Of a DNA stretch of 64,000 nt, positions 1 through 53,154 are shown piece after piece. The translations under genes were made by a program, and so were the position numbers. How positions within the stretch are numbered: position 1 is the first letter of the stretch; each line of letters begins with the position of its first letter. The DNA comes from a virus. Below the pieces are notes generated by a model. It saw only the letters and a program-made list of their open reading frames with translations, did not search any database and was not told the origin of the DNA. The stretch is taken from positions 1 through 64,000 of the IMG/VR virus record IMGVR_UViG_3300021368_000010; one strand, 5' to 3'.

Positions 1-1869
1 AGGTTTAGCACCCTTCTCCTTCTTCTTACCCTGAGGTTGGATCGCCTTCTTTCTAGATGACATTGCACCACCGGTAGGTCTCATCATCTTCTGCATTGAT
101 TTCCCTACTTCAGATCTACCTTCGCCACCCTTCTCAGAAGGATTGCCAGTTGTATAATCTTTGCCAGTTTCCTTAGCGTAGCGAGTACGCTCATCAAATT
201 GATGAACTGCTTCCTTAAAAGACTTAGTTTTCTTTTCAGGTTTCATGTCAATACTCTTCTTCTTTGCAGGAGAAGACTTAGAAGATAGAGGCAAATTAGA
301 TGCTGATGCTCCCTTAGGGGCATTAGATCCTGAATCTTTAACCGCAGATGCGCTAACATCAATAGAAGGTTTCATATTGCTCATAGCAGATGGAGTTGGC
401 GGAGGAGCAGATTGAGTCTTAGGTGCCTCTTTCTTTTTACTACCTCCAAACAATCCAAACAATTCATTTACATTCTCTGGATCCTGACAAAAATGTCTAA
501 AGGATTTAATGTCTGCAGATTCTTTCTTAGGAGTCGGGACATTCATCCTTGACAGCATAGATTTATTTTTCATTGCAGGAGCGAATGTTTTCTGTATTGA
601 TGTTGCAACATTTCCAGTGAAACCTCCAGCTCGCCCATCTTGACCCCGAGCAGAGTATGTTGACGGTTTCATGGACATGGCGTTATTACCAGCTCCAGGC
701 GACATAGGTTTTTGAATTGCCGCTGATAACGGATTTGGTTTTGCAGAACTTGGTGCAGAAGGACTACCTGCCATACCTGCTCTACCTGCCATAGACCGAG
801 ATCCTTGGTTTGGTTTTAACTTCATCGACGCTATTTTGCTAACGGCTTCATCTACACCCTCAACTTCTTCCTTCTTTACCTTGCCACCCTTAGAATAACC
901 AAGAACTTTAGTGTCCTGTTTACCCATCATCTGATTCATCATCTGACGACGTTGACCAAGTTTAGAAGCAAGACCAGCATGACTAGGCATCTGTTGACCG
1001 GATGAAGAACCTCCAGGTGCAGAACCTCCCGCAGGTTTCTTTCCACCACCAAAAAGTCCTTGAAGGAACTCATTCAGTTGCTCTTCATCGAGAGTTTGTG
1101 CATGTTGATACTGGTCAAATGTCAGGAAGGGAATTTCAGTTTCCTCTTTCTTGACTTTACCACCCGCAGACTTTTTACTAATGTTAACATTGTTTGCCTT
1201 CATGGTAGATTTCCAAAAATTACCACCACCTCCAAGTTTCTGACCAAGAGGGCTGTTGAACATCGACTTTTGAATACCGACTGGCATACCCATGCTTGGT
1301 CTTTGTGATGTATATGAATTTCTTGCACTTGGTTTGACTGAGTTCATATACGAACCCATTCCGCCAGGAAGAGGAGATTTAAACGAACCAGGGTTAGCCC
1401 TATAAGCTTGCTTAAAGTCTTTCTTGCTGGAGTAAGTGCTGCCCGCCTTTGCGCCAACAGAACCAGGCAATGCTTCAGTCAAGTCCGTCTCAGTTTCGTA
1501 GCCTTCTTGATAGCCTTCTTCTGAAACTTCTTCTTGACTGACATAGGCTTCCTCCTTTTGAGTTTTTGCTTTGCGTTTTGCTGCTGCTTTTGCTTTTAAT
1601 CGCTCTTTAGCAGCATCCTGTTCTCCTTTAGGAATGGAGAACATGTTACGATCGGTCTTTAGTTTTTCATCGGGTTTGTCATACCCCTCATTAGCAACAT
1701 CAGGACCGTCCTTTACATCATCTTTTCTACGCTTTTTGTCACACTTAGAACAATCACAGTCCTCACCATGATTCTTCTTTACATCTCCAGAACCTTCAAT
1801 GATTTCATTCTTTTTAGGATTGATTTTAACTTTAGTTTTTCTTTCGGATAATTGACTGAAACTTAACAT
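1..1869 (-). CDS. Lys/Gly/Ser-rich virion-type protein, C-terminus beyond the window
   Basis: The reading frame is open from the ATG at 1869 to the left edge (623 codons), so the C-terminus is missing. The protein is low-complexity and rich in Lys, Gly, Ser, Met and Pro. It has GGKVKK motifs shared with the next protein, a Cys cluster near residue 40 (CDCSKCDKK), and short hydrophobic blocks ending in NEFLQGLFGG and NELFGLFGG. Its start overlaps the stop of the 573-aa gene (ATGA), which implies coupled translation. The N-terminus (MLSFSQLSE) loosely resembles the start of the nucleotidyltransferase two genes upstream. Proteins of this composition are usually virion-associated in marine T4-like phages. 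The exact role is unknown. Confidence 0.75.
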   Translation of the reverse strand, partial: MLSFSQLSERKTKVKINPKKNEIIEGSGDVKKNHGEDCDCSKCDKKRRKDDVKDGPDVANEGYDKPDEKLKTDRNMFSIPKGEQDAAKERLKAKAAAKRKAKTQKEEAYVSQEEVSEEGYQEGYETETDLTEALPGSVGAKAGSTYSSKKDFKQAYRANPGSFKSPLPGGMGSYMNSVKPSARNSYTSQRPSMGMPVGIQKSMFNSPLGQKLGGGGNFWKSTMKANNVNISKKSAGGKVKKEETEIPFLTFDQYQHAQTLDEEQLNEFLQGLFGGGKKPAGGSAPGGSSSGQQMPSHAGLASKLGQRRQMMNQMMGKQDTKVLGYSKGGKVKKEEVEGVDEAVSKIASMKLKPNQGSRSMAGRAGMAGSPSAPSSAKPNPLSAAIQKPMSPGAGNNAMSMKPSTYSARGQDGRAGGFTGNVATSIQKTFAPAMKNKSMLSRMNVPTPKKESADIKSFRHFCQDPENVNELFGLFGGSKKKEAPKTQSAPPPTPSAMSNMKPSIDVSASAVKDSGSNAPKGASASNLPLSSKSSPAKKKSIDMKPEKKTKSFKEAVHQFDERTRYAKETGKDYTTGNPSEKGGEGRSEVGKSMQKMMRPTGGAMSSRKKAIQPQGKKKEKGAKP

Positions 1870-3590
1870 CACTCTTCCTCCTTTTTCATTCTTTCTTTTG
1901 CTCTGCGCTTACCAACACCTTTGTAAATGTTAGATGCTTGTTTTGCTTTCTTAGATGCTCTCTCTTTATCTCCGGAAAGTGCTGCCTTTCTTCTTTCCTC
2001 ATCTGCCTTTTGAGAAGCAGTGAGTGCCAGGTCAGCAGAGATCTCATCAATCTGACCAACTTCTTCTTTCTTCATCGCTTCCTTTTCTTTACGGAGAGCA
2101 ACAGAACTTTTTCTCTTTGGCATGTTAGGGTAATAAGTTTTACCTACCTCTGCTTTCTTTACAACCTCACCGGTCTTAGCATCTCGGTGCATACCCTCTT
2201 TTTCTTCTTTCTTATACTGAGGGTGGTCGTCGAGTTTCATTCCACGCTTTTTCTCAAGGCGTGCTTTGCGTTCTGCAGTTTTATCATCACGAACACCTTC
2301 AACTACATTCTCAATCTCAGTAAGAGTAAAGAGACCTGACTCATAGAGATGTGCGATTTGATCATAATCTTCACCAAGACGCTTAGCGAGTTTATCACTG
2401 CCACCAGATACTGCACGAGCAGTCTTACCAACTGCCCTCTTCAGACCGCTACCAATTCTCGAAAGCAAACCAGGCTTCTTCGCCTTAGGTGCTTCACTTT
2501 CCCCGCCACCAGACGATGCACTGCTGCTTCCACCGCCAGAACTACTACCTTTTGTACCTCTTGTAGATGCCAAGAGAGCATCTAACTTACCACCAGTTCC
2601 GTCGTCAGAACTCTTCTTCTCTTTTGCAGCAGGTTTAGATTCGCCCTTGGGTGCTTCCTTCTTACCAGGAGCACCTTCTTTGCCACGCTTGTAACCAGCA
2701 GAGAAACTCTTCTTAAGGGAAGAACCGCCACGCTGAGCAGCACCAACTGCATAACCAGCACCCTTAGCAGCACCCTTGACCGCTGCCTTAGCAGCAGGTT
2801 TTACCATCTTCATGCCAGCAGCAGCACCTGCCTTAACTCTCTTACCTGCTTCTTTAGCAGCACCCTTCATGCGAGCAGTACGGGAAGGACCTGCTTTCTT
2901 TGCTGCTTCCTTCGATTGCTTTACAGCAGAATCATAATACTTGTCACTTGCTTCCGAAATTGCATCTGCCATTGCTTGAACAGATTCTTTCTTATATCCG
3001 CTCTTCTTAACTTTGCCACCCTTAGATTTTTTAGGCATTCCCGTAAGAGGATTATTACCCATTGCCATACCAACAAGCCCGCCGAGGAGTTCATCGAGTT
3101 GCTCAACTTCCTCATCCAGAAGTTCTACTTCCTCAAGTGCCTCTGCAATCTCAAGCAGATCTTCATCATCCTCAGCAAGGTCAACAATTGCTTCCATCAT
3201 GGTATCGATGAGTTCCTCGTCAGTCATCTCATCGATCTCTTCCAGACCTTCGATCTCGTCTTCGCTAAAATAAAATGCTTCTTTGACACAGTTGTCAACT
3301 GTCTTACCGCCTTTCTTTTTAGTACCGGCAAGTTTATATCCCTTCCAACATGCCTTACCGTCTAAACCCTTTTCTTTGCCTTCTTCAACTTCCTCAACTT
3401 CTTCCTTCTTCATCGCTTTGGCGATTGCCTTGCGACGATTTGCCAGATACTTATCATTGGGATCATTCTTTTTCCCATCATTATCAATATCCCCATCTTC
3501 TTTTCCAACAGGGTCTAGTTCTGGTTTCCTTTTACCTTCATATACCTGTCTGAGAGCATCAGACATATCAGGAAGTTCGTTGAGATTCAT
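1869..3590 (-). CDS. Virion-type protein with acidic domain and histone H1-like Lys/Ala tail
   Basis: 573 aa, no enzyme family recognised. Residues 32-46 hold a Ca-loop-like DxDxDG motif (DIDNDGKKNDPND). Residues 81-101 hold a W-GYK-GTKKKGGK-NCV motif common in marine phage proteins. Residues 105-170 are very acidic. Residues 222-328 are rich in Lys and Ala, with KAAKKAG-like blocks resembling a histone H1 tail. A Ser/Gly linker follows, then a second charged part. A GATAAATA late promoter lies 25 nt upstream, supporting late expression and a structural or packaged role. DNA condensation inside the head is inference only. Confidence 0.8.
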   Translation of the reverse strand: MNLNELPDMSDALRQVYEGKRKPELDPVGKEDGDIDNDGKKNDPNDKYLANRRKAIAKAMKKEEVEEVEEGKEKGLDGKACWKGYKLAGTKKKGGKTVDNCVKEAFYFSEDEIEGLEEIDEMTDEELIDTMMEAIVDLAEDDEDLLEIAEALEEVELLDEEVEQLDELLGGLVGMAMGNNPLTGMPKKSKGGKVKKSGYKKESVQAMADAISEASDKYYDSAVKQSKEAAKKAGPSRTARMKGAAKEAGKRVKAGAAAGMKMVKPAAKAAVKGAAKGAGYAVGAAQRGGSSLKKSFSAGYKRGKEGAPGKKEAPKGESKPAAKEKKSSDDGTGGKLDALLASTRGTKGSSSGGGSSSASSGGGESEAPKAKKPGLLSRIGSGLKRAVGKTARAVSGGSDKLAKRLGEDYDQIAHLYESGLFTLTEIENVVEGVRDDKTAERKARLEKKRGMKLDDHPQYKKEEKEGMHRDAKTGEVVKKAEVGKTYYPNMPKRKSSVALRKEKEAMKKEEVGQIDEISADLALTASQKADEERRKAALSGDKERASKKAKQASNIYKGVGKRRAKERMKKEEE

Positions 3591-3594
3591 TTTA

Positions 3595-4752
3595 CTAAGC
3601 GTCCTTTTCCTTTTTATTTATCTTACGAAGAAACTCACCTGGAGTTAATCGTCTAACATAATCTCTAAGTTCATCAGTACCAACTTGTCCAGCAGGTGTC
3701 CAGTCAAAATATTTTAAATTGTTAATTTCAACCAAATCCTTCAACCAAGTGCGGAAGATATTATCATGCTCATCAATACTGATGACATAATTACTGCCGC
3801 GACTGACAACCTTACTAATAATTCCGGTGTTAGCATTCTCAACAAAGGTTCCTTCATTGAAAATTTCACCGGCAAAGTATGCCTCACGAAGACCTTGAAT
3901 GTCTAATTTAGGAGCAATCTCATGTACAGCATATGATGCCTCAGCAAAATCATCAAATGATTCTTGGACATTCATTGCTTGGCGAAGAGTGAGGAATACT
4001 TCTTCTTGATCTTTCTTACTTAATGCTTTTGGCATACCTTGCTTAAAGGTATCAAAGTCACCTTCTGCTGCTGCCTTTCTCATCTTGGATGCAGACATAC
4101 CTTCCACACCATCAGAGTCAGGGTCTCTATCACCTGCCGATGTTACTTTGATGTTATCGAATGTATATAACTTTCCGTTGTATTTTGATGCAAGTGAATT
4201 GAACTCGCTAACACGGTCACCTCCCACAACAATATTAACGCTGCTATACCCGTCATTATCGAGAGCGGTAAGAACATCAAAGATGGTACGCATATCGTCA
4301 GACGAAGTAATTGCATTCGCGTGATCGGGATATGCCATCCGCATAAAACGAACCTTAGTGCTCGGGTCGAGGGGATTCTTCTTAGGATCCTGCGACCTTG
4401 AGGGGTATATTCGATACTCTCCTCCATTTGATTTTGCCTCTCTTGCTACTTTTGCAAGAAGTTTTTCATGCCCGACAGTAGGGGGATTAAATCTTCCAAA
4501 TGTAATAGATATTGTGCCTTGATCGACCTTGCCTTCGCCGCTTGAAGTTTCTTCTCCTCCACTTTGCTGTGCTCCAGTATCTAAATCTTTCGGGTCAATC
4601 TTTACAAGTTTCCCATCCTTTGACATATGGGTTACGTTTCCTCTTACATCGGCGTACCGACCGTAACCAATATGTTTAAGTTGTAATTTTTCTGCTTCTT
4701 TAGAAGCATGTGATTTTTCGGCTTCAGTTAGGAAAGCACTAAAACTTTTCAT
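3595..4752 (-). CDS. Cytidylyltransferase-like nucleotidyltransferase with capsid-targeting-like N-terminus
   Basis: 385 aa. Residues about 80-100 carry TFGRFNPPTVGHEKL, the HxGH-type phosphate-binding motif of the cytidylyltransferase/NMN adenylyltransferase superfamily. Further fold features include VVGGDR and a GMSASKMR stretch matching the ISxTxIR/K motif. The enzyme should transfer a nucleotide to a phosphorylated substrate, which cannot be read from sequence. The first residues, MKSFSAFLTEA, resemble the T4 internal-protein capsid-targeting peptide (MKTYQEFIAEA) and contain an LxE site of the type cut by gp21 protease. About 150 C-terminal residues match no family I know. The gene sits 1 nt downstream of a ligase-like gene. 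Confidence 0.75.
   Translation of the reverse strand: MKSFSAFLTEAEKSHASKEAEKLQLKHIGYGRYADVRGNVTHMSKDGKLVKIDPKDLDTGAQQSGGEETSSGEGKVDQGTISITFGRFNPPTVGHEKLLAKVAREAKSNGGEYRIYPSRSQDPKKNPLDPSTKVRFMRMAYPDHANAITSSDDMRTIFDVLTALDNDGYSSVNIVVGGDRVSEFNSLASKYNGKLYTFDNIKVTSAGDRDPDSDGVEGMSASKMRKAAAEGDFDTFKQGMPKALSKKDQEEVFLTLRQAMNVQESFDDFAEASYAVHEIAPKLDIQGLREAYFAGEIFNEGTFVENANTGIISKVVSRGSNYVISIDEHDNIFRTWLKDLVEINNLKYFDWTPAGQVGTDELRDYVRRLTPGEFLRKINKKEKDA
3615..3622 (-). promoter_or_regulatory. Late promoter GATAAATA
   Basis: GATAAATA on the minus strand, 25 nt upstream of the 573-aa virion-type gene, inside the 3' end of the preceding gene. It matches the NATAAATA pattern of T4-type late promoters read by gp55. 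Confidence 0.6.
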
Positions 4753-4753
4753 T

Positions 4754-5662
4754 CTACCAATTTTTACTAAGATTAAAGTTTGCTTTACTAAAAGTCAGTC
4801 GATCTACGATTTTATATGGATTATCTGAGATTATTACGAATCCTTCGTGTGAGGATGGTTTACCATCGATGAAACATTCAACATTCCCATTTGTAACAAT
4901 CGCATCAAGTAGACGCTGTTTCAGTTGGAAGATTTTATGCCACACCATGAAGGTCTGAACATTAACCTCTTGCTTATATTTAGCATCCATTGCACTATGC
5001 ATTACACCAGGACTTGGAATGCTGCCAGCACGAATAAATTTATTGACAAAAGTCCTCAAATACAATCTAGTACACTTATCTTTGGATACCTTACACTGGG
5101 GAATCAGTGCAAGAATTTCAGCAACTAGTTTGGGAGCAAACCATTTACCAACAACAGCATCAGTAGTGTCAATGAAATGAGTTCCTAGTGCAGACAGAAG
5201 TTTGACTCCAACCTTACCTTCAGCAGTAGGAGAAATCTCCGTATAGGAAGTATGGGGTGCTACAATAATATCGCTACGAATAGGAGAATCAAAACGATAG
5301 GTAACGGTATTGGGAGTATATGACCTGCCGCCACCAATGCCAATAAAGTCAGCTTGAGTAATACCAGGAGTATGGGGAAGATGACGTAAACACATACGAA
5401 GGATATCAGCAACGCGACCAGTATGGTTTTTATCGATATCTTCATTGGTATAATTGATCAGAACTTTCTTTTTATTGAATACCGACTTGGTGCCGACAAA
5501 GAACTTACCGTTCTCTGGATTGGTGCCAAACACAATAGCAGGAGCACCGTCCCACTTAACACTGACCTTACGGCACAGAAGCATCTCTTTGACAGCAGCA
5601 AGTGCTGCCCGACGACCATCGAAGATAGAATCTTCTGGATGCTCAAGGTGTTTGTTAGGCAT
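4754..5662 (-). CDS. Ligase-like covalent nucleotidyltransferase (KxDG family), unknown substrate
   Basis: 302 aa from the ATG at 5662; a 51-nt longer start at 5713 has no ribosome site, while 5662 has GAGGG just upstream. K36-W-D38-G39 fits motif I (KxDG) of the DNA/RNA ligase and mRNA-capping superfamily. Near the C-terminus, HEGFVII fits motif IV and PYKIVDR fits motif V. The N-terminus begins NKHLEHPED. No classical ligase accessory domain is seen, so the substrate is unknown. Together with the downstream cytidylyltransferase-like gene it forms a two-enzyme nucleotidyl-transfer pair. The family assignment is from motifs only; the protein is conserved-hypothetical in type. Confidence 0.7.
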   Translation of the reverse strand: MPNKHLEHPEDSIFDGRRAALAAVKEMLLCRKVSVKWDGAPAIVFGTNPENGKFFVGTKSVFNKKKVLINYTNEDIDKNHTGRVADILRMCLRHLPHTPGITQADFIGIGGGRSYTPNTVTYRFDSPIRSDIIVAPHTSYTEISPTAEGKVGVKLLSALGTHFIDTTDAVVGKWFAPKLVAEILALIPQCKVSKDKCTRLYLRTFVNKFIRAGSIPSPGVMHSAMDAKYKQEVNVQTFMVWHKIFQLKQRLLDAIVTNGNVECFIDGKPSSHEGFVIISDNPYKIVDRLTFSKANFNLSKNW

Positions 5663-5683
5663 GTCCCTCGTGTCTATACCATT

Positions 5684-5692
5684 ATTATAGCA
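5684..5692 (-). promoter_or_regulatory. Extended -10 promoter TGCTATAAT
   Basis: The minus strand reads TGCTATAATAATGG about 22 nt upstream of the 5662 start codon. The TGN-TATAAT form suits a host sigma-70-type extended -10 promoter. No good -35 box is seen at the usual distance. The same TGCTATAAT core recurs before cobS and cobT. Confidence 0.45.
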
Positions 5693-5727
5693 TGTCAAAG
5701 TTGAATCGCACATGAGTGTGTACCAGT

Positions 5728-37306: not shown

Positions 37307-38686
37307 TCACATGAGGTTTGCAACCTGGACTCTTCTGTAGTAGCGGTTGCTGTTTGCAGTCAGAGCACCGGAACCTTGGGTCAGACCTTGAGCGAAGGGG
37401 TTCGAGACCATGCCGTAGCGAGTCTTGAAGCCGATCTTGGGCTGGAAGGTGTTGGGGTTGATTGCACGAACCTGCTGGAGAGGTACATAGGGGCAATAGA
37501 ACAGACCTGCGTCATAGGGGCTAGTACCCTTATAACCTGCAACATAGAAGTGCTTATCAGCAATGTTTGCAGAGTAGGGGTCAACATAGACCTTGATGCG
37601 ACCGTTGAGAGTACCAACCATGGTGCTGGAGGTGTCGTCAACGCCGGTCAGGGAGTTGTTACCAGACAGAGCAGGGGTGTAATCGAGAACACCAGCCATA
37701 CCCAGTGCAGAAGCAACGTCAGCAGAGCAGATCAGGATGTTGCCCTTGCCGCGACGAGTTTGCTGACCGATAGCGTTAGCATCTCTTTCGATCTGGAACA
37801 GAAGTCCTTTGAACTTCTCAACAGACCAACGACCATTGGAGTCAACGTCCAGGTCGAAGATACCAGCGTTAGCAGTGTTGTTCTGAGCACCAGCAACAGC
37901 GTTGGTGTAGATGGTACGAACAACTTCTCTGTTGATTTCAGCGAGGATCTCAGTAGAGAGGATGTTGCTCAGTTCCTGCTCAGCATCCAGACCATGGATT
38001 GCCTTGAGGTCTTGTGCCATCTCGATGCTGTACTCAGCCTTCAGGGCACGAGCACGAGCGGTTACAGTGACCTTCTCGATCGAGAAGCCCATTTCACGGA
38101 ACTCGCTTCCAGAGGTAGCGTCGTCCAGACCTTCAACAGTTGCAGTGGTCATGCCGGTAGCATCGCCTGCCTGCTCGTAGGTGCCGGGGGAACCATCGTT
38201 CAGAACACCGGGGTTGTTGCCCTCAGCGTCGTTGTTAGCAGAGCTAGAAGCACCAGGATCGTAGGAGGTGCCAGCACCACCAGAGAAACCTGCGTTAGGC
38301 TCGTTGAAGAATGCCTCGTCATAACCGCCAGCAGCGGGGTTACGCTCGCTACCATAGTTGGTACGCATTGCGAAGATCAGTCCAGTAGGACCAGTCATCG
38401 GTTGAACGCCAGCGATATCGTAAGCGATCAGTTGGGGCATAGAGCGTCTGATCAGGGAGATCAGAACGGGGTCGAAACCAGCGACAGGACCAGTAGCGGT
38501 ATCGCCACCAGTGTAACCGGTTGTTTGAAGTGTTTCGTTAAGGATACCTGCCTCTTCGGTCAGGGCCTTCTCTTGGTTTTCGAGGAGTTGTGCGACTACG
38601 CCTTTCTTGTAGGAATCTCCGATCTCCGGCAGAGCGTCGTGTTCCAGAACGGGTGCCCACTTTTCCTGGAGTTGCTTAAAGGACAT
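37307..38686 (-). CDS. 23: gp23 major capsid protein
   Basis: 459 aa. PVLISLIRRSMPQLIAYDIAGVQPM and GPTGLIFAMRTNYGS are highly conserved gp23 segments. The first ~60 residues form the pro-piece removed by gp21 protease; a cut after an LxE-type site is expected. It forms the head hexamers. GGAG precedes the ATG. No late box is seen right before it, so it may be read from the gp22 promoter. Confidence 0.97.
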   Translation of the reverse strand: MSFKQLQEKWAPVLEHDALPEIGDSYKKGVVAQLLENQEKALTEEAGILNETLQTTGYTGGDTATGPVAGFDPVLISLIRRSMPQLIAYDIAGVQPMTGPTGLIFAMRTNYGSERNPAAGGYDEAFFNEPNAGFSGGAGTSYDPGASSSANNDAEGNNPGVLNDGSPGTYEQAGDATGMTTATVEGLDDATSGSEFREMGFSIEKVTVTARARALKAEYSIEMAQDLKAIHGLDAEQELSNILSTEILAEINREVVRTIYTNAVAGAQNNTANAGIFDLDVDSNGRWSVEKFKGLLFQIERDANAIGQQTRRGKGNILICSADVASALGMAGVLDYTPALSGNNSLTGVDDTSSTMVGTLNGRIKVYVDPYSANIADKHFYVAGYKGTSPYDAGLFYCPYVPLQQVRAINPNTFQPKIGFKTRYGMVSNPFAQGLTQGSGALTANSNRYYRRVQVANLM

Positions 38687-38723: not shown

Positions 38724-39782
38724 TTATTTGGACCAGCGAGCGATAGCATCGACATACTTCGACATCGTGCCGCTTGCTGTACTTTCGATAAGGGGTTCTG
38801 TTGCTTCTTCGGTGGGGTCACTTACAGATTCTGTAAGTTCAGCCTTCCTAGTGAAGTATGATTCCTTAATCGTTTCGACCTTATTTCTAAAGTCTTCTTC
38901 AGTTTCAAACTCAACACCCTCTGCCAGAGAAGCAAGCTTCTCCTTCTGTGTCTCTGCGAGACCAACAGCGCATTCGTTCACAATTTCCATTTTGACAAAT
39001 TCGCCAACACGCTTATTCAAAGCGATATTAGCGTCGATTTGCTCGTTGAGTTTAGCTTCCATTTCATCAATTTCACCTGCCATTCCATCTAGCAGGTTGA
39101 ACTTCTCTTCGGGAACACTGAAATTGTGCTCCATGAAAAGACCTTTTAGGCCGTTGAAGAAAGACTCTGCCATCTCAGTCTTAATACCGTGCTCGATCTG
39201 GAGAGCATTCTCTTTCATCCAGGACTCGGCGGCATAAGTGAGGTAATCGTCTACCTTCTCGGCCAAACTTGTTTGAATCTTTTCGACTTCTTCCGTCAGA
39301 GTAGATTCAAATGCCTCTTGCAATGCTGCAACTTCAGCATTGACTTTTGCGGTGACAGCAGCTTCAAAAATGGTTACTGCTTTTTGTCTGAACTCTTCTG
39401 AGAGATCTTCACCTGCGACAAGAGCGTCAACATCTTCAGTAAAGTCGTACTCGGTTTCAGCGAGGACTTCTTCTTCGCCATCTTGCTCTACCTCATCGAA
39501 AATTTTGGAAGATAATGCACCGGGCATTGCAGAAGATGCGTTGGAGGACTTGGTTCCAAGAGACTTACTGCCTTCTTTACCTACTGAACCAGCTGCCGAT
39601 GCACCAGCATTTTTAGTGCCAGCGGCACCTTCCATGCTATCAGTGTTAACATCGATAACTTTCTTTGCACCACCTTTAGAGGTGTCGATTCTTTCGCCAG
39701 GCTTTGCGTTCTTGGTAACAGCGTTAGAGCCTTCGTCCACTTGTTCCATTGAATCTAACTCTTTATCGAGGGTCTCAGACAT
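38724..39782 (-). CDS. 22: gp22 prohead scaffold
   Basis: 352 aa. Acidic, helical scaffold with many LxE/IxE sites for gp21. The N-terminal 90 residues are Gly/Ala/Lys-rich (GTKNAGASAAGS), and the C-terminal 200 residues form coiled-coil text (NALQIEHGIKTEMAESFFNGLKGLFMEHN, a motif of gp22). Position between gp21 and gp23 matches T4. A TATAAATA box lies 38 nt upstream. Confidence 0.9.
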   Translation of the reverse strand: MSETLDKELDSMEQVDEGSNAVTKNAKPGERIDTSKGGAKKVIDVNTDSMEGAAGTKNAGASAAGSVGKEGSKSLGTKSSNASSAMPGALSSKIFDEVEQDGEEEVLAETEYDFTEDVDALVAGEDLSEEFRQKAVTIFEAAVTAKVNAEVAALQEAFESTLTEEVEKIQTSLAEKVDDYLTYAAESWMKENALQIEHGIKTEMAESFFNGLKGLFMEHNFSVPEEKFNLLDGMAGEIDEMEAKLNEQIDANIALNKRVGEFVKMEIVNECAVGLAETQKEKLASLAEGVEFETEEDFRNKVETIKESYFTRKAELTESVSDPTEEATEPLIESTASGTMSKYVDAIARWSK

Positions 39783-39829: not shown

Positions 39830-40474
39830 TCATAAACTCTTCAAAAACTTAGCGAACGCGGAAACTTTGCGTTCTTGTAAGTTAATGAGAGTCGCTTCAT
39901 CAATTTCAGTTTTAATTTGAGCAACCGCAGATTCTCTAAGAATCCCGTTCTCCCAAACCCATTCTTTTCCTTCCATAATTCCATCGACAAAAGCATCAGG
40001 AGCAGAAGGATCTGCTACAATATCAGCAGCTGTGGCAAGCATAAAATCATCTGCAACCATGCTGCAGTTTTCTTTCTTAATGATGGAACCCATGCCTCGG
40101 GAAGATACACCTAAACGAACACCCTCATCGAGGAGGTTCTTAGCAATCTTACCCATGGGGGTATCAAGTAACTTTGCTTTACCAACAAAGTTAGTTCCAT
40201 CTTCAGAAAGGGAAACGATCTTATGCGACACTCTATCAAGATTGATAGAAGGTCCGTCAGGATGACCTAATTCTCCAAGAGCACGCCCCTTTTGAATATA
40301 GTTCTCATCGTATTTAGCAACTTCACGCGCCAAAGTTTTCATAGGATACATTCTGCCATTGCGGTTCTTAAGTTCCGCTTGCAGGAAGATACCTTCAATG
40401 AAGTAATTTTTCTTGCCTTCTTTCTCTTCACAGAGAAAATCGACGGTTGTAATTTCTTCAGCTATCAGTCTCAT
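39830..40474 (-). CDS. 21: gp21 prohead protease
   Basis: 214 aa from the ATG at 40474 (GAGG upstream), the same length class as T4 gp21 (212). YFIEGIFLQAELKNRNGRMYP, LGELGHPDGPSIN with the catalytic His, and LGVSSRGMGS with the catalytic Ser mark the herpes/T4-type serine protease. It cuts scaffold and head proteins after LxE-type sites. It overlaps the preceding gene by 17 nt. Confidence 0.95.
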   Translation of the reverse strand: MRLIAEEITTVDFLCEEKEGKKNYFIEGIFLQAELKNRNGRMYPMKTLAREVAKYDENYIQKGRALGELGHPDGPSINLDRVSHKIVSLSEDGTNFVGKAKLLDTPMGKIAKNLLDEGVRLGVSSRGMGSIIKKENCSMVADDFMLATAADIVADPSAPDAFVDGIMEGKEWVWENGILRESAVAQIKTEIDEATLINLQERKVSAFAKFLKSL

Positions 40475-40781
40475 CGGTTTGTTCCTCAGGTTCTTCGGTT
40501 TCTTGTTCTGCTTCGGGGGGTTCATGAGGTTGCCTCTCATCAACTTCTACATCACTGTATTCAGTATCCGTACCATCAGGCATGGAACCTTCAATTTCAT
40601 CCGCAGCAGATTGTGCGGTATCGTCCAATTCAAATCCCATTGTTTTTGCAAAGTCAATTTTCCTTTGCTGAACAGCATCATATGCAATAGTATTTAACGC
40701 AGTTTGCACTGAATCTATTGCTCCCGCTTTATCATCACCAAAAATTTGTTTGACGATTTGTTGTGAAATCTCGCTTGGCAT
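40458..40781 (-). CDS. Acidic prohead core protein (gp67/gp68 position)
   Basis: 107 aa. The N-terminus SEISQQIVKQIFGDDKAGAIDSVQTALNTIAYDAVQQRK is conserved-looking; the C-terminal half is Glu/Asp/Pro-rich (EAEQETEEPEEQTDE). It sits between gp20 and gp21, the place of T4 gp67 and gp68. Probably cut by gp21 into small acidic peptides. Confidence 0.75.
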   Translation of the reverse strand: MPSEISQQIVKQIFGDDKAGAIDSVQTALNTIAYDAVQQRKIDFAKTMGFELDDTAQSAADEIEGSMPDGTDTEYSDVEVDERQPHEPPEAEQETEEPEEQTDETDS

Positions 40782-43816: not shown

Positions 43817-44467
43817 TCAGTCCTCTCCAGCGCCGTTAGGAATGGTGACACCATCAACATTCTTACCGCCAGCGGTTCCAGCAGAACCTTCATCGATTGT
43901 CCAATATGCATATTGCATTTCTACAGTGAATTCTGTAATTGAATCATTAGCATTTGCATCAAGATCGATTGCGGAAATATTGGTGGGATATGCATGATGA
44001 AATTTATAGGTTTTAATTTTTTGCTTACCATTGTCATTGGTGTTGTTACCAAACTTAGACAAGAGGTGAACATACATCGGTTGATGATATTTAAATCCTT
44101 TGAAGTTGGATCTGTTCTTGGATGCGTTATTCATCGCATTAATCCAGGACTCAAATGACTTGCGGATACCCTGCTTAGTATCGTTCATAACAGTGATAGT
44201 CCAGGGCTCATAAGTTCTATCTCCAGGAATCTTATATGTTCTTCCTTGGAAAGGAACTTCAATAACACCTACGGTTGACGCAGGCATTTGTGCTGCACGA
44301 ATAAAGAACTTGGCATTCTTTTGCGTGTCCGCACCCTTTTCGATGTTACCACCCTCGGTTAAGTCATTTGCCTTAGGAAAGGTAATCTCGCAAGTGAACA
44401 GGTTAGACCTTGCAAACTCCTTACCGGCAATGCCGCTCCTGAAGTCGTCGATCGTATGATTTGCCAT
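43817..44467 (-). CDS. gp19-like tail tube paralogue 3
   Basis: 216 aa. EFARSNLFTCEITFPKAND, AAQMPASTVGVIEVPFQGRTYKIPGDRTYEPWTITVMND and HHAYPTNISAIDLDANANDSITEF match paralogue 2. It has its own late promoter and follows gp18. Confidence 0.85.
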   Translation of the reverse strand: MANHTIDDFRSGIAGKEFARSNLFTCEITFPKANDLTEGGNIEKGADTQKNAKFFIRAAQMPASTVGVIEVPFQGRTYKIPGDRTYEPWTITVMNDTKQGIRKSFESWINAMNNASKNRSNFKGFKYHQPMYVHLLSKFGNNTNDNGKQKIKTYKFHHAYPTNISAIDLDANANDSITEFTVEMQYAYWTIDEGSAGTAGGKNVDGVTIPNGAGED

Positions 44468-44511
44468 GGATAACTATCTCCTATCTAAAACGAGGTGTCT
44501 GTCTCTATGTT

Positions 44512-44519
44512 TATTTATA
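44512..44519 (-). promoter_or_regulatory. Late promoter TATAAATA for tube paralogue 3
   Basis: Exact consensus, 45 nt upstream of the ATG at 44467 and 6 nt after the gp18 terminator. Confidence 0.8.
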
Positions 44520-44524
44520 CAAAT

Positions 44525-44554
44525 AAAAAATTTGGGGACCTTTCGGTCCCCAAA
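44525..44554 (-). terminator. Terminator downstream of gp18
   Basis: Minus strand TTTGGGGACC-GAAA-GGTCCCCAAA then TTTTTT: 10-bp perfect stem with a GNRA loop. Confidence 0.9.
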
Positions 44555-49953: not shown

Positions 49954-50037
49954 CTACTTTCTGTATCTAATTGGCCATGTTAGTTCCATAGCAGAAATAA
50001 GCAACAAAATAAAAGCAAATACAAACAATGTGCTCAT
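49954..50037 (-). CDS. Single-span microprotein after zwf, 27 aa
   Basis: MSTLFVFAFILLLISAMELT then a short basic end. Its ATG overlaps the zwf stop (ATGA). Size and layout resemble small photosystem or cytochrome b6f subunits, but no family matches by eye. Confidence 0.5.
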   Translation of the reverse strand: MSTLFVFAFILLLISAMELTWPIRYRK

Positions 50038-51380
50038 GCTGGATAATCCCAATCGATTGCCATTTGATGGGTTTTATGTTGTGGTCCCCATGTATTTTCC
50101 ATATAGATGTAAGGTACAGTTCTGATCTGACATTGATCGCCTACACATAGTAGATCATCAACAATTCTCCATGATTCCATAACTTCCTCTGCATGAACGA
50201 AGTGTGATTGATCTCCATTGATTGCATCATAAAGAAGTTTTTCATAACCATCAACTGCTCTTTCCTGAGGATACTCATGGGTGAGAGTGGCAAGTTCAAG
50301 ATCATTATTTAAACCGGGAGACTTAATGTCCATCCGAATATCAAGATGGGGATTAGGTTGTACACGAATAACGATGCGATCATTAATCTCTCCTTCATAC
50401 AATTTTAGCGGTGGAGCTTTGAGTTTAATGACTACTTCTACACAACCATAAGGCATCTTCTTGCCTGTCATGACATTAAAAGGAACTCCCTCCCAACGCC
50501 AGTTATCGACGAATAAAGTACCAGCAAAATAGGTAGGAGTATTACTGTTAGGATCAACGCCCTCTTCATCTTTGTACCCATGGTATTGTCCGAGAATAAT
50601 GGATGGTGACATTCTAGTGGCAGCTAAGACTTTTGTCTTCTCTCTTCTGACTTCTTTTGCTGACATTCGTGAAGGGGGTTCCATTGCAATTAAAGCAAGA
50701 ACCTGGAGAACATGATTCTGTAGCATGTCTCGAACTGCTCCAGCAGTTTCATAATACTGAGCACGACCTTCGCATCCGATAGTTTCAGTTGCAAAGATCT
50801 GAACCTCTTCTATATATTCCCTGTTCCAAAGAGGTTCCAGTAGAATATTGCTAAAGCGGGTGGCAAGGATATTATTAACAGTATCTTTGCCGAGATAATG
50901 ATCAATCCGATAAACCTGTTTTTCGCGTAGATGTCTAGCAACCAAAGTTGATAGATGATCAGCAGATTTATAATCGTGCCCAAAGGGTTTTTCAATAACA
51001 ACACGCGATGTTTCTGAGTCATCTAAACAACCTGCCTCCTTTAGATTAGTGATTGCATCTCCATATCTTTCTGGTGGAACCGAAAGAAAATAAGTCATAT
51101 CATCAATGTATGCTGGGAGATTCCTAAGACTATCTACATTCTCCAGATCAGCACATTGATAATCTAAATTCTGCAAGAAATCATCTGGATAGTCGCCAAG
51201 AGATTCTTTCCATTGATTTACTGTAGGTTCTCTCCTAGCACTACCTACAATTAAAAAATTATCTGGCAGAAGTTCTTTCTGCCAGAGTTTATAGAGTGCT
51301 GGGATCAATTTCTTTTTACAGAGATCTCCAGTTGCACCGAAGATCACAATACCTTTAGTGAGCGGTTCCATTTCCATCAT
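50034..51380 (-). CDS. zwf: Glucose-6-phosphate 1-dehydrogenase
   Basis: 448 aa from the ATG at 51380; the frame runs 93 nt further through an overlapping microprotein gene. IVIFGATGDLCKKKLIPAL is the NADP-binding loop and RIDHYLGKDTV the substrate site (catalytic His-Tyr). It makes 6-phosphogluconolactone and NADPH, feeding the oxidative pentose phosphate pathway with gnd downstream in map order. Cyanophages use this to raise NADPH and ribose for dNTPs. Confidence 0.96.
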   Translation of the reverse strand: MMEMEPLTKGIVIFGATGDLCKKKLIPALYKLWQKELLPDNFLIVGSARREPTVNQWKESLGDYPDDFLQNLDYQCADLENVDSLRNLPAYIDDMTYFLSVPPERYGDAITNLKEAGCLDDSETSRVVIEKPFGHDYKSADHLSTLVARHLREKQVYRIDHYLGKDTVNNILATRFSNILLEPLWNREYIEEVQIFATETIGCEGRAQYYETAGAVRDMLQNHVLQVLALIAMEPPSRMSAKEVRREKTKVLAATRMSPSIILGQYHGYKDEEGVDPNSNTPTYFAGTLFVDNWRWEGVPFNVMTGKKMPYGCVEVVIKLKAPPLKLYEGEINDRIVIRVQPNPHLDIRMDIKSPGLNNDLELATLTHEYPQERAVDGYEKLLYDAINGDQSHFVHAEEVMESWRIVDDLLCVGDQCQIRTVPYIYMENTWGPQHKTHQMAIDWDYPA

Positions 51381-51486
51381 ACTTGTCTGTTTCGTAATAG
51401 TTATTTTCACCTTTTCGTATCCCGAAATATATCGTGGCCAATACAAATGGTACTGATATCCAGAGGAGTGCATTGCCTAAAGTCAT
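51355..51486 (-). CDS. Single-span microprotein between gnd and zwf, 43 aa
   Basis: MTLGNALLWISVPFVLATIY then FGIRKGENNYYETDKYDG and a short end. One span at 4-22. The ATG overlaps the stop of the barrel-like gene (ATGA); its tail overlaps the zwf start by 26 nt. Function unknown. Confidence 0.65.
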   Translation of the reverse strand: MTLGNALLWISVPFVLATIYFGIRKGENNYYETDKYDGNGTAH

Positions 51487-51956
51487 TTGAAAAATACCTT
51501 AAATCCAAAAGATGTTCTGCCACCTTTAATATTTCTAATACTAGTTATGTGTTCAGCATAAACTTTAAAGTCATCACCATATTCTACGCCTAATGATGCC
51601 AATGGTCCGTCAAACCTATCATTACTATCAAAATCAGAATTGTTAATGCTGATCCCAGAGTAAAGAGTAGCGGCACCAGCTGGGGCGAGAAACTTGACAC
51701 CTGCATGATTGACTCCCGGATGATCGTTGCATTGCATTGGTGATGAAAGATGTTCAGCAAACAATCTTACATGTTTATGAATATCATATTCAATACCAAA
51801 AGAACCCATTGGTTCTTCAAATTTTAATTGATCGTTGTTATCCCATGGATCTGCATTGATAGAAACATAGGTTCTAACTGATTCTGGTGTGATCCATCCA
51901 GCGACTGCGGTCACAGCGGTTGCCGCAACACTATAATTACCAAGACAAATACTCAT
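51483..51956 (-). CDS. Exported barrel-like protein with internal duplication
   Basis: 157 aa. A weak signal-like start (YSVAATAVTAVAGW) precedes two similar halves: EPMGSFGIEYDIHKHVRLFAEHLSS and GPLASLGVEYGDDFKVYAEHITS. The beta text ends in TSFGFKVFFK, with a terminal aromatic-charged pattern of outer-membrane barrels. It lies between gnd and zwf. Role unknown. Confidence 0.6.
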   Translation of the reverse strand: MSICLGNYSVAATAVTAVAGWITPESVRTYVSINADPWDNNDQLKFEEPMGSFGIEYDIHKHVRLFAEHLSSPMQCNDHPGVNHAGVKFLAPAGAATLYSGISINNSDFDSNDRFDGPLASLGVEYGDDFKVYAEHITSIRNIKGGRTSFGFKVFFK

Positions 51957-52975
51957 CTTACGTCATGTCCTCCAAACATTGCTCGCATTCCGTTCAGAAC
52001 CTTGGCAGCGAAAGCACCAAGACGGCGCGACTCAAAACGAGACCACAACGCACTGCTGATGACAGGAGCGGGTACACCAAGGTCCACAGCAGCGTGAACA
52101 GTCCAACGACCCTCACCAGAGTCTGATACTCCCCCATCGAACTTGCTAAGCTCTCTATCGCGGCGTAATACATCAGCGGTAAGATCAAGTAACCAACTGC
52201 CAACAACGCTACCGCGACGCCATAACTCAGCCACCTCAGCAACATCAATGTCATATTGATAATCCCTTGGATTTTCCATCGGGGCAACTTCAGCATCACC
52301 TTCCTTGACATATTGAGAACCTGCATTTGCTTCATGTAGAATGTTAAAACCTTCGGCATATGCTTGCATGATTCCATACTCAATGCCGTTATGAACCATC
52401 TTTACAAAGTGACCTGCTCCAGGTGGTCCACAATGTAACCAACCATACTCGGCACTTGTTTCATAACTGAGGGGGTCTGTACGAGAGGCAGATCCAATAC
52501 CTGGTGAGAGTGCTCTAAAGATAGGAGCGCAGACGGATACTGCAGTAGTTGTACCACCAACCATAAGACAGTATCCGCGCTCCAGACCATAAACACCACC
52601 ACTAGTACCACAGTCAATATATTGGATGCCAAGTTTAGACAACCTTTCTGCCCTGCGTCTAGAGTCTTTAAAATTGGAATTGCCATGATCAATAATAATG
52701 TCACCTTCACTACAAAGTTGTAATAACTCATTGAGTGTCTCCTCTACTAATTCTGCAGGAATAACGAGTTGAAAGATGCCAGGATTGCCACCTTCCTTAA
52801 CTACTTGAACAAGGCTTTCCAGATTAGTGGCAACTCCACTGACATAACCCTTTTCAAACGCTTCTTCAGCTTTTGCATAATTCCTCCTGTAACCCCATAC
52901 TTCAATGTTTTGTTTCATCATACGGCGGGACATACCCTCGCCCATACGACCTAATCCGATTAATCCCACTTTCAT
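51953..52975 (-). CDS. gnd: 6-phosphogluconate dehydrogenase, short form
   Basis: 340 aa from the ATG at 52975 (AGGAGG upstream). GLIGLGRMGEGM binds NADP; CGTSGGVYGLERG and KMVHNGIEYG hold the substrate-binding and catalytic Lys/Asn residues. It is the shorter (about 300-340 aa) bacterial type rather than the 470-aa type. It oxidises 6-phosphogluconate to ribulose-5-phosphate and NADPH. ATGA overlap with the upstream gene. Confidence 0.95.
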   Translation of the reverse strand: MKVGLIGLGRMGEGMSRRMMKQNIEVWGYRRNYAKAEEAFEKGYVSGVATNLESLVQVVKEGGNPGIFQLVIPAELVEETLNELLQLCSEGDIIIDHGNSNFKDSRRRAERLSKLGIQYIDCGTSGGVYGLERGYCLMVGGTTTAVSVCAPIFRALSPGIGSASRTDPLSYETSAEYGWLHCGPPGAGHFVKMVHNGIEYGIMQAYAEGFNILHEANAGSQYVKEGDAEVAPMENPRDYQYDIDVAEVAELWRRGSVVGSWLLDLTADVLRRDRELSKFDGGVSDSGEGRWTVHAAVDLGVPAPVISSALWSRFESRRLGAFAAKVLNGMRAMFGGHDVR

Positions 52976-53154
52976 TCCCAAGTCCTCCTAGCGATTGCCG
53001 ATGCGGATCGGCGTTTTAATTCTGATGACAGAGATTCATACTCTCTGTACATACGATCTCCAACCGTGTACTTGCCCATTTTCTCTTCAACCGCTTCGAT
53101 GATTAGTTTGTAATCTTCTTGGGTGAGAATGTTGTACTTAGTTTCTTTACTCAT
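52972..53154 (-). CDS. Small soluble protein, 60 aa
   Basis: NILTQEDYKLIIEAVEEKMGKYTVGDRMYREYESLSSELKRR is helical. It overlaps gnd by 4 nt and the 62-aa membrane gene by 8 nt. Not recognised. Confidence 0.65.
   Translation of the reverse strand: MSKETKYNILTQEDYKLIIEAVEEKMGKYTVGDRMYREYESLSSELKRRSASAIARRTWE

What the first reader, a model, noticed from the sequence alone, without database searches (positions are those of the whole stretch)
3595..4752. Nucleotidyltransferase with a capsid-targeting-like N-terminus
The protein starts MKSFSAFLTEA. T4 internal proteins that are packed in the head and injected start MKTYQEFIAEA and are cut by gp21 after an LxE/IxE-type site. The same order of residues (M-K-S/T-F/Y-x-x-F-L/I-x-E-A) stands before a cytidylyltransferase HxGH domain. 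This suggests an enzyme packed in the capsid and injected into the cyanobacterium. Similar N-termini may be common on marine phage structural proteins, so the motif alone is not proof.
Basis: partly seen in the sequence, partly recalled or inferred. Interest (0 to 1): 0.65.

Follow-up and report, generated by a model that had tools for sequence, protein, structure and literature searches.

The report
Cyanophage enzyme tagged for head packaging
This marine cyanobacterial virus enzyme begins with a short address tag of the kind phage T4 uses to load proteins into its head. The tag is almost always kept in related viruses, and in four of them the enzyme has been found in purified particles, so it is probably delivered into the host with the viral DNA.

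Summary
The gene is on the minus strand (4752 to 3595, 385 aa). MKSFSAFLTEA matches the capsid-targeting sequence (CTS) of T4 IPII/IPIII in spacing: F4, F7, L8, E10|A11. The match is far beyond chance. All 80 close homologues keep it, as do 74 of 76 intact distant homologues found without using the N-terminus. Positions 4, 7 and 10 barely vary while 3, 5, 6 and 9 do, as T4 genetics predicts. The same DNA pattern in T4 finds ipII and ipIII (plus gene 61.1). In viral contigs it marks gene starts of about 34 sequence clusters; a scrambled control does not. Virion proteomics had already found the orthologue in S-SM1, S-SZBM1, S-SCSM1 and S-CREM2, and all four carry the tag. In S-CREM2 the five proteins with a CTS-like start are all in the 52-protein virion list (P=0.0006), including a SAM hydrolase and an APH-like kinase. 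A ~40-aa module after the tag recurs in that kinase and in a Cas9-like nuclease from the same virions. Packaging is well supported. Cleavage after FLTE and injection are inferred. The enzyme has an intact adenylyltransferase-type fold. Its substrate is unresolved: NMN is possible, but no NadV partner was found.

The parts
4720..4752 (-). Capsid-targeting sequence, residues 1-11 (MKSFSAFLTEA)
   Evidence: Same register as T4 IPII/IPIII; 80/80 and 74/76 homologues; entropy pattern
4722..4723 (-). Predicted prohead-protease cut between E10 and A11 (FLTE|AE)
   Evidence: FLTEAE is identical to T4 gp23 residues 62-67, cut after residue 65 (PMC9958956); position 9 is free to vary and 10 fixed. The cut itself is inferred
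4597..4713 (-). N-terminal GYG/GHG module, residues 14-52 (beta-rich in the model)
   Evidence: Profile also hits the S-CREM2 APH-like kinase (two copies) and Cas9-like nuclease; modelled strands at 26-51
3964..4518 (-). HIGH-type nucleotidyltransferase domain, residues 79-263
   Evidence: Pfam PF01467; pLDDT about 93; VIA-align Z 13-14 to PPAT, NadD and NadM
4468..4497 (-). Catalytic motif GRFNPPTVGH, residues 86-95
   Evidence: P90, P91 and H95 invariant in 66 sequences; most of the motif invariant in A2
4078..4095 (-). SASKMR, residues 220-225, at the place of the ISSTxxR nucleotide-binding motif
   Evidence: Alignment A2
3718..3903 (-). C-terminal small beta domain, residues 284-345
   Evidence: Model strands; the same segment sits on a separate protein in P-HM1
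1869..3590 (-). Downstream gp185-like acidic/basic repetitive protein
   Evidence: Partial homologue S-SZBM1_139 found in virions, 4 peptides; partial homologues SSCSM1_89 and SSCSM1_92 labelled virion protein
4754..5713 (-). Upstream DUF6267 protein with KWDG (ligase-like motif I); no CTS in the window, but a CTS in L164
   Evidence: Pfam E=1.7e-95; L164 E=1.5e-102
39830..40543 (-). gp21 prohead protease that would cut the tag
   Evidence: Peptidase_S77 E=7e-31
38724..39782 (-). gp22 scaffold core that the CTS would bind
   Evidence: T4_CASP E=7e-81
37307..38686 (-). gp23 major capsid protein; possible LNE site at residues 49-51
   Evidence: Gp23 E=7e-148; N-terminus printed; site inferred

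Best explanation
The protein is a capsid-loaded enzyme of a T4-like cyanophage. Its first 10 residues are a T4-type capsid-targeting sequence. They direct it into the gp22 core of the prohead, and the gp21-type protease then removes them after FLTE. The mature enzyme (GYG module + nucleotidyltransferase + small C-terminal beta domain) stays with the DNA and is ejected into the cyanobacterium, where it acts before phage genes are expressed, most likely as an adenylyltransferase on a nucleotide or cofactor pool. Shown: the tag, its conservation and its portability. From the literature: presence of orthologues in virions of four phages. Inferred: cleavage, ejection and substrate.
For: Register and residues equal T4 IPII/IPIII. 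T4 mutagenesis places targeting at residues 4 and 7 and processing at 8 and 10 (PMC9026906); in 76 non-redundant homologues the entropies are 0.20 (4), 0 (7), 1.06 (8), 0.10 (10), against 1.6-2.8 at 3, 5, 6 and 9. Tag kept in 80/80 close and 74/76 intact distant homologues found without the N-terminus. The CTS pattern marks gene starts of about 34 sequence clusters, with recognisable T4-core neighbours in 77 of 116 loci; scrambled control 16 stretches. Virion MS of tagged orthologues: S-SM1 (PMC3037559), S-SZBM1 (PMC9146016), S-SCSM1 (PMC9602691), S-CREM2 (PMC10665884); their tags are. In S-CREM2, 5 of 219 proteins score as CTS and all 5 are among the 52 virion proteins, P=0.0006. gp21, gp22 and gp23 are present. 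FLTEAE equals the T4 gp23 cut site.
Against: No N-terminal peptide data were available, so cleavage is unproven. The MS authors warn that abundant enzymes may co-purify in CsCl (PMC10665884, PMC9602691). P-HM1 has the enzyme without a tag. Three small CTS proteins in S-SZBM1 and S-SCSM1 are absent from the virion lists or labels. The NTase operon in the window has no TATAAATA late motif nearby, unlike several head/tail genes.
Confidence: 0.85

Rival explanations
1. The conserved N-terminus is only the first helix of the enzyme's own fold; the enzyme acts late in infection and merely sticks to virions during purification.
For: Residues 4-12 are modelled as a helix; the MS authors raise contamination themselves.
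Against: The same 11 residues stand before about 33 other sequence clusters. Some family members have no GYG module, yet the tag stands directly before the catalytic domain (L235, L184; S-CREM2). Residue 9 varies freely while 8 and 10 do not.
Confidence: 0.08
2. The tag loads the protein into the prohead core, but the enzyme has a structural or assembly role there and is not injected.
For: Neighbouring virion proteins of unknown function; the gp185-like neighbour looks like a core or scaffold protein.
Against: The catalytic motifs are kept. T4 CTS proteins are known to be ejected (PMC9026906).
Confidence: 0.12
3. The enzyme is an NMN adenylyltransferase that restores NAD after host NAD-depleting defence.
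For: Best PDB sequence match is the MJ0541 NMNAT, but weak, E=0.027; fold matches NadD/NadM; four tagged relatives carry a C-terminal P-loop kinase domain, an order like NadR.
Against: PPAT scores as well or better. No NadV in nine relatives, although a survey found NadV in every NadM phage (PMC9503650). P-loop kinases of this type are not only NR kinases.
Confidence: 0.35

Closest known systems
T4 internal proteins IPII and IPIII with capsid-targeting sequence
   Same: Same 10-residue tag, same spacing, gp21-type cut site, T4-type head genes present
   Different: IPII and IPIII are small proteins not known as enzymes; here the cargo is a 385-aa enzyme with an extra GYG module. PMC9958956 reports the CTS only on IPII and IPIII among T4 core proteins
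T4 Alt (head-packaged ADP-ribosyltransferase)
   Same: An enzyme carried in the head, trimmed by gp21 and ejected (PMC9026906)
   Different: Alt belongs to the ART family; this is a HIGH-type nucleotidyltransferase with an IPIII-like tag
Virion-associated NMNAT/cytidylyltransferase of S-SM1, S-SCSM1, S-SZBM1 and S-CREM2
   Same: Orthologues of this protein, found in virions by MS
   Different: The passages I read in those papers did not explain how it gets in and allowed for contamination; the tag supplies a mechanism
Bacterial/archaeal PPAT (CoaD), NadD, NadM
   Same: Fold and catalytic motifs, Z 13-14
   Different: About 10-18% identity; substrate-recognition residues differ; extra tag, GYG module and beta domain
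Polyvalent proteins of phages (described in PMC5512222, PMC9503650)
   Same: Virion-borne proteins thought to be injected
   Different: Those are very large multidomain chains; these are separate proteins each with its own short tag

Membership tests
T4-type CTS internal head protein | Aromatic/hydrophobic residues at 4 and 7, K at 2, at the true N-terminus | tested here: met
   F4, F7, K2; kept in 80/80 and 74/76 homologues
T4-type CTS internal head protein | gp21 site [L/I]xE at residues 8-10 | tested here: met
   LTE|A; L/I/F/V at 8, E at 10
T4-type CTS internal head protein | Phage encodes gp21 protease, gp22 core and gp23 shell | tested here: met
   Pfam hits in the window
T4-type CTS internal head protein | Protein present in mature virions | tested here: inconclusive
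   Not tested for this phage; tagged orthologues found in four others by published MS
T4-type CTS internal head protein | Propeptide removed in the virion | not testable with these tools
   Needs N-terminal peptide mapping
T4-type CTS internal head protein | Ejected into the host | not testable with these tools
   Needs infection experiments
NMN adenylyltransferase (NadM/NadD/NadR) | HIGH-type fold with [HT]xGH and ISSTxxR-like motifs | tested here: met
NMN adenylyltransferase (NadM/NadD/NadR) | Closer to NMNAT than to other adenylyltransferases | tested here: inconclusive
   PPAT, NadD and NadM tie at Z 13-14; sequence match E=0.027
NMN adenylyltransferase (NadM/NadD/NadR) | NadV partner in the same phage (NadM-type salvage) | tested here: not met
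   PF04095 absent in nine relatives, with the control positive
CTP-using cytidylyltransferase | RTEGISTT-type motif | tested here: inconclusive
   A2 shows SASKMR at that place; the motif rule is from my own knowledge and CTP use was not assayed

The most novel reading that the evidence does not exclude
T4-like marine phages share a plug-in loading cassette, a CTS usually followed by the GYG/GHG module, that has been joined to unrelated enzymes (nucleotidyltransferase, APH-like kinase, Cas9-like nuclease; the CTS alone on a SAM hydrolase and others). The set of proteins each phage injects could then be read from its genome.
Probability: 0.6. Interest if true: 0.75.

Novelty: new variant of a known kind. 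Interest (0 to 1): 0.64.

Why it matters
Virion proteomics of cyanophages keeps finding this enzyme and a few others that authors could not tell from contaminants. The tag gives a specific, testable reason for their presence and predicts further cargo from sequence. If the enzyme is injected, the phage starts changing host nucleotide or cofactor chemistry before it expresses any gene. The tag and module may also help load chosen proteins into laboratory cyanophage heads.

Tried and rejected
CTP-using cytidylyltransferase: a superfamily name only; fold and C-terminal motif point to adenylyltransferases. NadV-dependent NAD salvage: no NadV found. S-CBWM1 NMNAT as a further test: no match to this family in that record. 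DUF6267 against PDB sequences: no hit. Late promoter of the NTase operon in the window: no TATAAATA; only variable TAAATA-like motifs in relatives. Rank test of CTS score over all S-CREM2 virion versus non-virion proteins: not significant (P=0.73), as expected, because most virion proteins are structural and need no CTS; only the high-score tail is informative. In alignment A1, F4/F7/E10/A11 are invariant partly by selection, because 45 of its 66 rows come from the CTS-pattern scan, so conservation is claimed only. The 34 clusters are by BLAST at E 1e-5, so some may be distant relatives.

Full report
OBSERVATION. The coordinates are right but the gene is on the minus strand: 4752 to 3595, 385 residues. 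It starts MKSFSAFLTEA, and the Pfam CTP_transf_like domain lies at residues 83-189. In homologues the start is unambiguous: all 80 close relatives align from residue 1, none has an upstream in-frame ATG, GTG or TTG, and the 5 to 17 codons upstream end at a stop.

COMPARISON WITH T4. A DNA pattern for M-K-x-[FY]-x-x-[FY]-hydrophobic-x-E, run on the T4 genome, gives three hits: ipII, ipIII and the 54-aa gene 61.1. IPII and IPIII are the proteins for which the capsid-targeting sequence (CTS) is described. T4 mutagenesis places targeting at residues 4 and 7 and processing at 8 and 10 (PMC9026906). The cut after E10 would fall in FLTE|AE, which is letter for letter the T4 gp23 sequence around residue 65; [quoted passage not shown] The window encodes gp21, gp22 and gp23 homologues.

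IS IT MORE THAN CHANCE? Homologues were collected by body or catalytic-domain patterns, not by the N-terminus. All 80 close ones keep the tag in the register M-K-[KS]-F-x-[AS]-F-L-x-E-A. Of 76 intact distant ones, 72 match the CTS regex and two more are one-residue-shorter variants (MNFVDFIKEA), making 74; the last two read MKKFSEFLGS. In 76 non-redundant sequences the entropies in bits are 0.20 at position 4, 0 at 7, 1.06 at 8 (L, I, F or V), 0.10 at 10 and 0.70 at 11, against 1.62, 1.91, 2.41 and 2.77 at 3, 5, 6 and 9, and about 3 just after the site. This is what the T4 mutagenesis predicts. Among 1,267 start codons in window ORFs the enzyme's start scores 32.8 and the next best 2.6; the matrix was trained on this family.

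THE TAG IS PORTABLE. An exact CTS pattern scanned over IMG/VR stopped at 120 stretches. Of 124 matches, 120 are at the first ATG of their frame and 119 open frames of at least 60 aa; they fall into 34 BLAST clusters. The nucleotidyltransferase is the largest cluster (58). Others include DUF6267, DUF6321, a GNAT acetyltransferase, a DPBB protein, and PHROG matches to a deoxyribonucleotidase, a metalloprotease and endonuclease VII. Recognisable T4-core genes lie near 77 of 116 loci. A control with the same codons in another order gave 16 stretches over the whole collection, mostly short frames or internal starts.

LINK TO VIRION PROTEOMICS. Published MS found this enzyme in virions of S-SM1 (T4-GC190; PMC3037559), S-SCSM1 (PMC9602691), S-SZBM1 (2 peptides; PMC9146016) and S-CREM2 (3 peptides; PMC10665884). 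All four orthologues carry the tag: MKKFSAFLNEA, MKSFLQFLKEA, MRFRQFIIEA (one residue shorter) and MKNFSSFLTEA. S-CREM2 allows a blind test. A score matrix built from the IMG/VR homologues plus the T4 tag gives positive scores to 5 of 219 proteins: gp154 (this enzyme), gp14 (APH-like kinase), gp13, gp6 (annotated SAM hydrolase) and gp136. All five are among the 52 virion proteins, Fisher P=0.00065; the next score is -6.6. Among 900 internal methionines only one scores above 0, at 0.1. Elsewhere the record is mixed but favourable: S-SM1 1 of 1 (with the first 20 kb of that genome not scanned), S-SCSM1 1 of 2, S-SZBM1 1 of 3; the undetected ones are proteins of 105-165 aa. A rank test over all virion proteins is not significant, because most are structural.

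A SECOND MODULE. A profile of the ~40 residues after the tag (GYGRYAD...VTHMSKDGKLVKI here) hits the S-CREM2 APH-like kinase twice (E 3e-6 and 3e-10) and the S-CREM2 Cas9-like nuclease (E 5e-14), which carries the tag-like RFASFMAEA inside its N-terminus. Both are virion proteins with 21 and 28 unique peptides. Three unrelated enzymes thus share a tag-plus-module N-terminus.

NEIGHBOURS. In S-SCSM1 the genes around the enzyme, SSCSM1_89 to 93, are labelled virion proteins. The window's downstream protein (1869-3590) shares segments with SSCSM1_89 and 92 and with S-SZBM1_139, which was detected with 4 peptides. The upstream DUF6267 protein has a KWDG motif and no tag in the window, but a relative in L164 has one.

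THE ENZYME. The model is confident for the catalytic domain (pLDDT about 93). Structural matches are PPAT, NadD and NadM, tied at Z 13-14. The motifs GRFNPPTxGH and SASKMR are conserved, so it is probably active. The substrate is open. For NMN: a weak match to an archaeal NMNAT (E=0.027), and four tagged relatives with a C-terminal P-loop kinase domain, an order like NadR. Against: no NadV in nine relatives, and PPAT fits as well.

MECHANISM. Shown here: the tag, its conservation pattern, its portability and its statistical link to virion proteins in one phage. From the literature: virion presence of four orthologues. Inferred: binding to the gp22 core, cutting after E10, ejection and early action. 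Exceptions: P-HM1 keeps the catalytic domain without a tag, and the jumbo phages 121Q and Paride have untagged versions.

NOVELTY. The CTS and the virion-borne NMNAT-like enzyme are each known. Joining them, the shared GYG module and the cross-family use of the tag in marine T4-like phages are new as far as the held library shows: 'capsid targeting sequence' together with 'cyanophage' found only a T4 review. Subscription papers were not searched.

Noticed in passing
T4 NC_000866.4 18966-19130, minus: T4 gene 61.1 (54 aa, hypothetical) starts MKTFKEFIKE, a CTS-like N-terminus, and lies next to 61.2 (adfA in PMC9391042). It may be an unrecognised internal head protein.
   Followed up: no
S-CREM2 OR473000 7704-10313, minus (in L398): A Cas9-like nuclease detected in virions has the tag-like RFASFMAEA at residues 18-26, then the GHG module.
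   Followed up: partly
L235, L184, L166, L226: CTS + nucleotidyltransferase fused to a C-terminal P-loop kinase (AAA_33/Zeta_toxin-like), an order like NadR, with no GYG module.
   Followed up: partly
S-SZBM1 122311-122628; S-SKS1 112701-113009; G001 99616-99942; S-SCSM1 44215-44535: A ~105-aa protein (NISGDFNGxL...) with a CTS; in S-SZBM1 and S-SCSM1 it lies a few genes or less upstream of the terminase large-subunit gene. Function unknown, and it was not in the virion lists or labels.
   Followed up: partly
window 39820, 43786, 44512, 46890 (minus): TATAAATA late-type motifs sit just upstream of the gp22, tail and sheath gene starts, but none near the nucleotidyltransferase operon.
   Followed up: partly
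window 4754-5713, minus: The DUF6267 protein carries KWDGAPA, like motif I (KxDG) of ligases and capping enzymes; relatives in IMG/VR carry a CTS (L164).
   Followed up: partly
S-SKS1 HQ633071, 72006-73234, minus: The tagged N-terminus and the catalytic part are in different frames and no gene is annotated there: a broken gene or a sequence error.
   Followed up: no
window 50034-52981, minus: Proteins that look like glucose-6-phosphate dehydrogenase and 6-phosphogluconate dehydrogenase lie between head and neck genes (judged from sequence only).
   Followed up: no
S-SM2 49522 and 91376, plus: Two further CTS-like starts: MKTLGQFLAEAYDK (193 aa) and MKTLKQFLKETPTN (142 aa).
   Followed up: no
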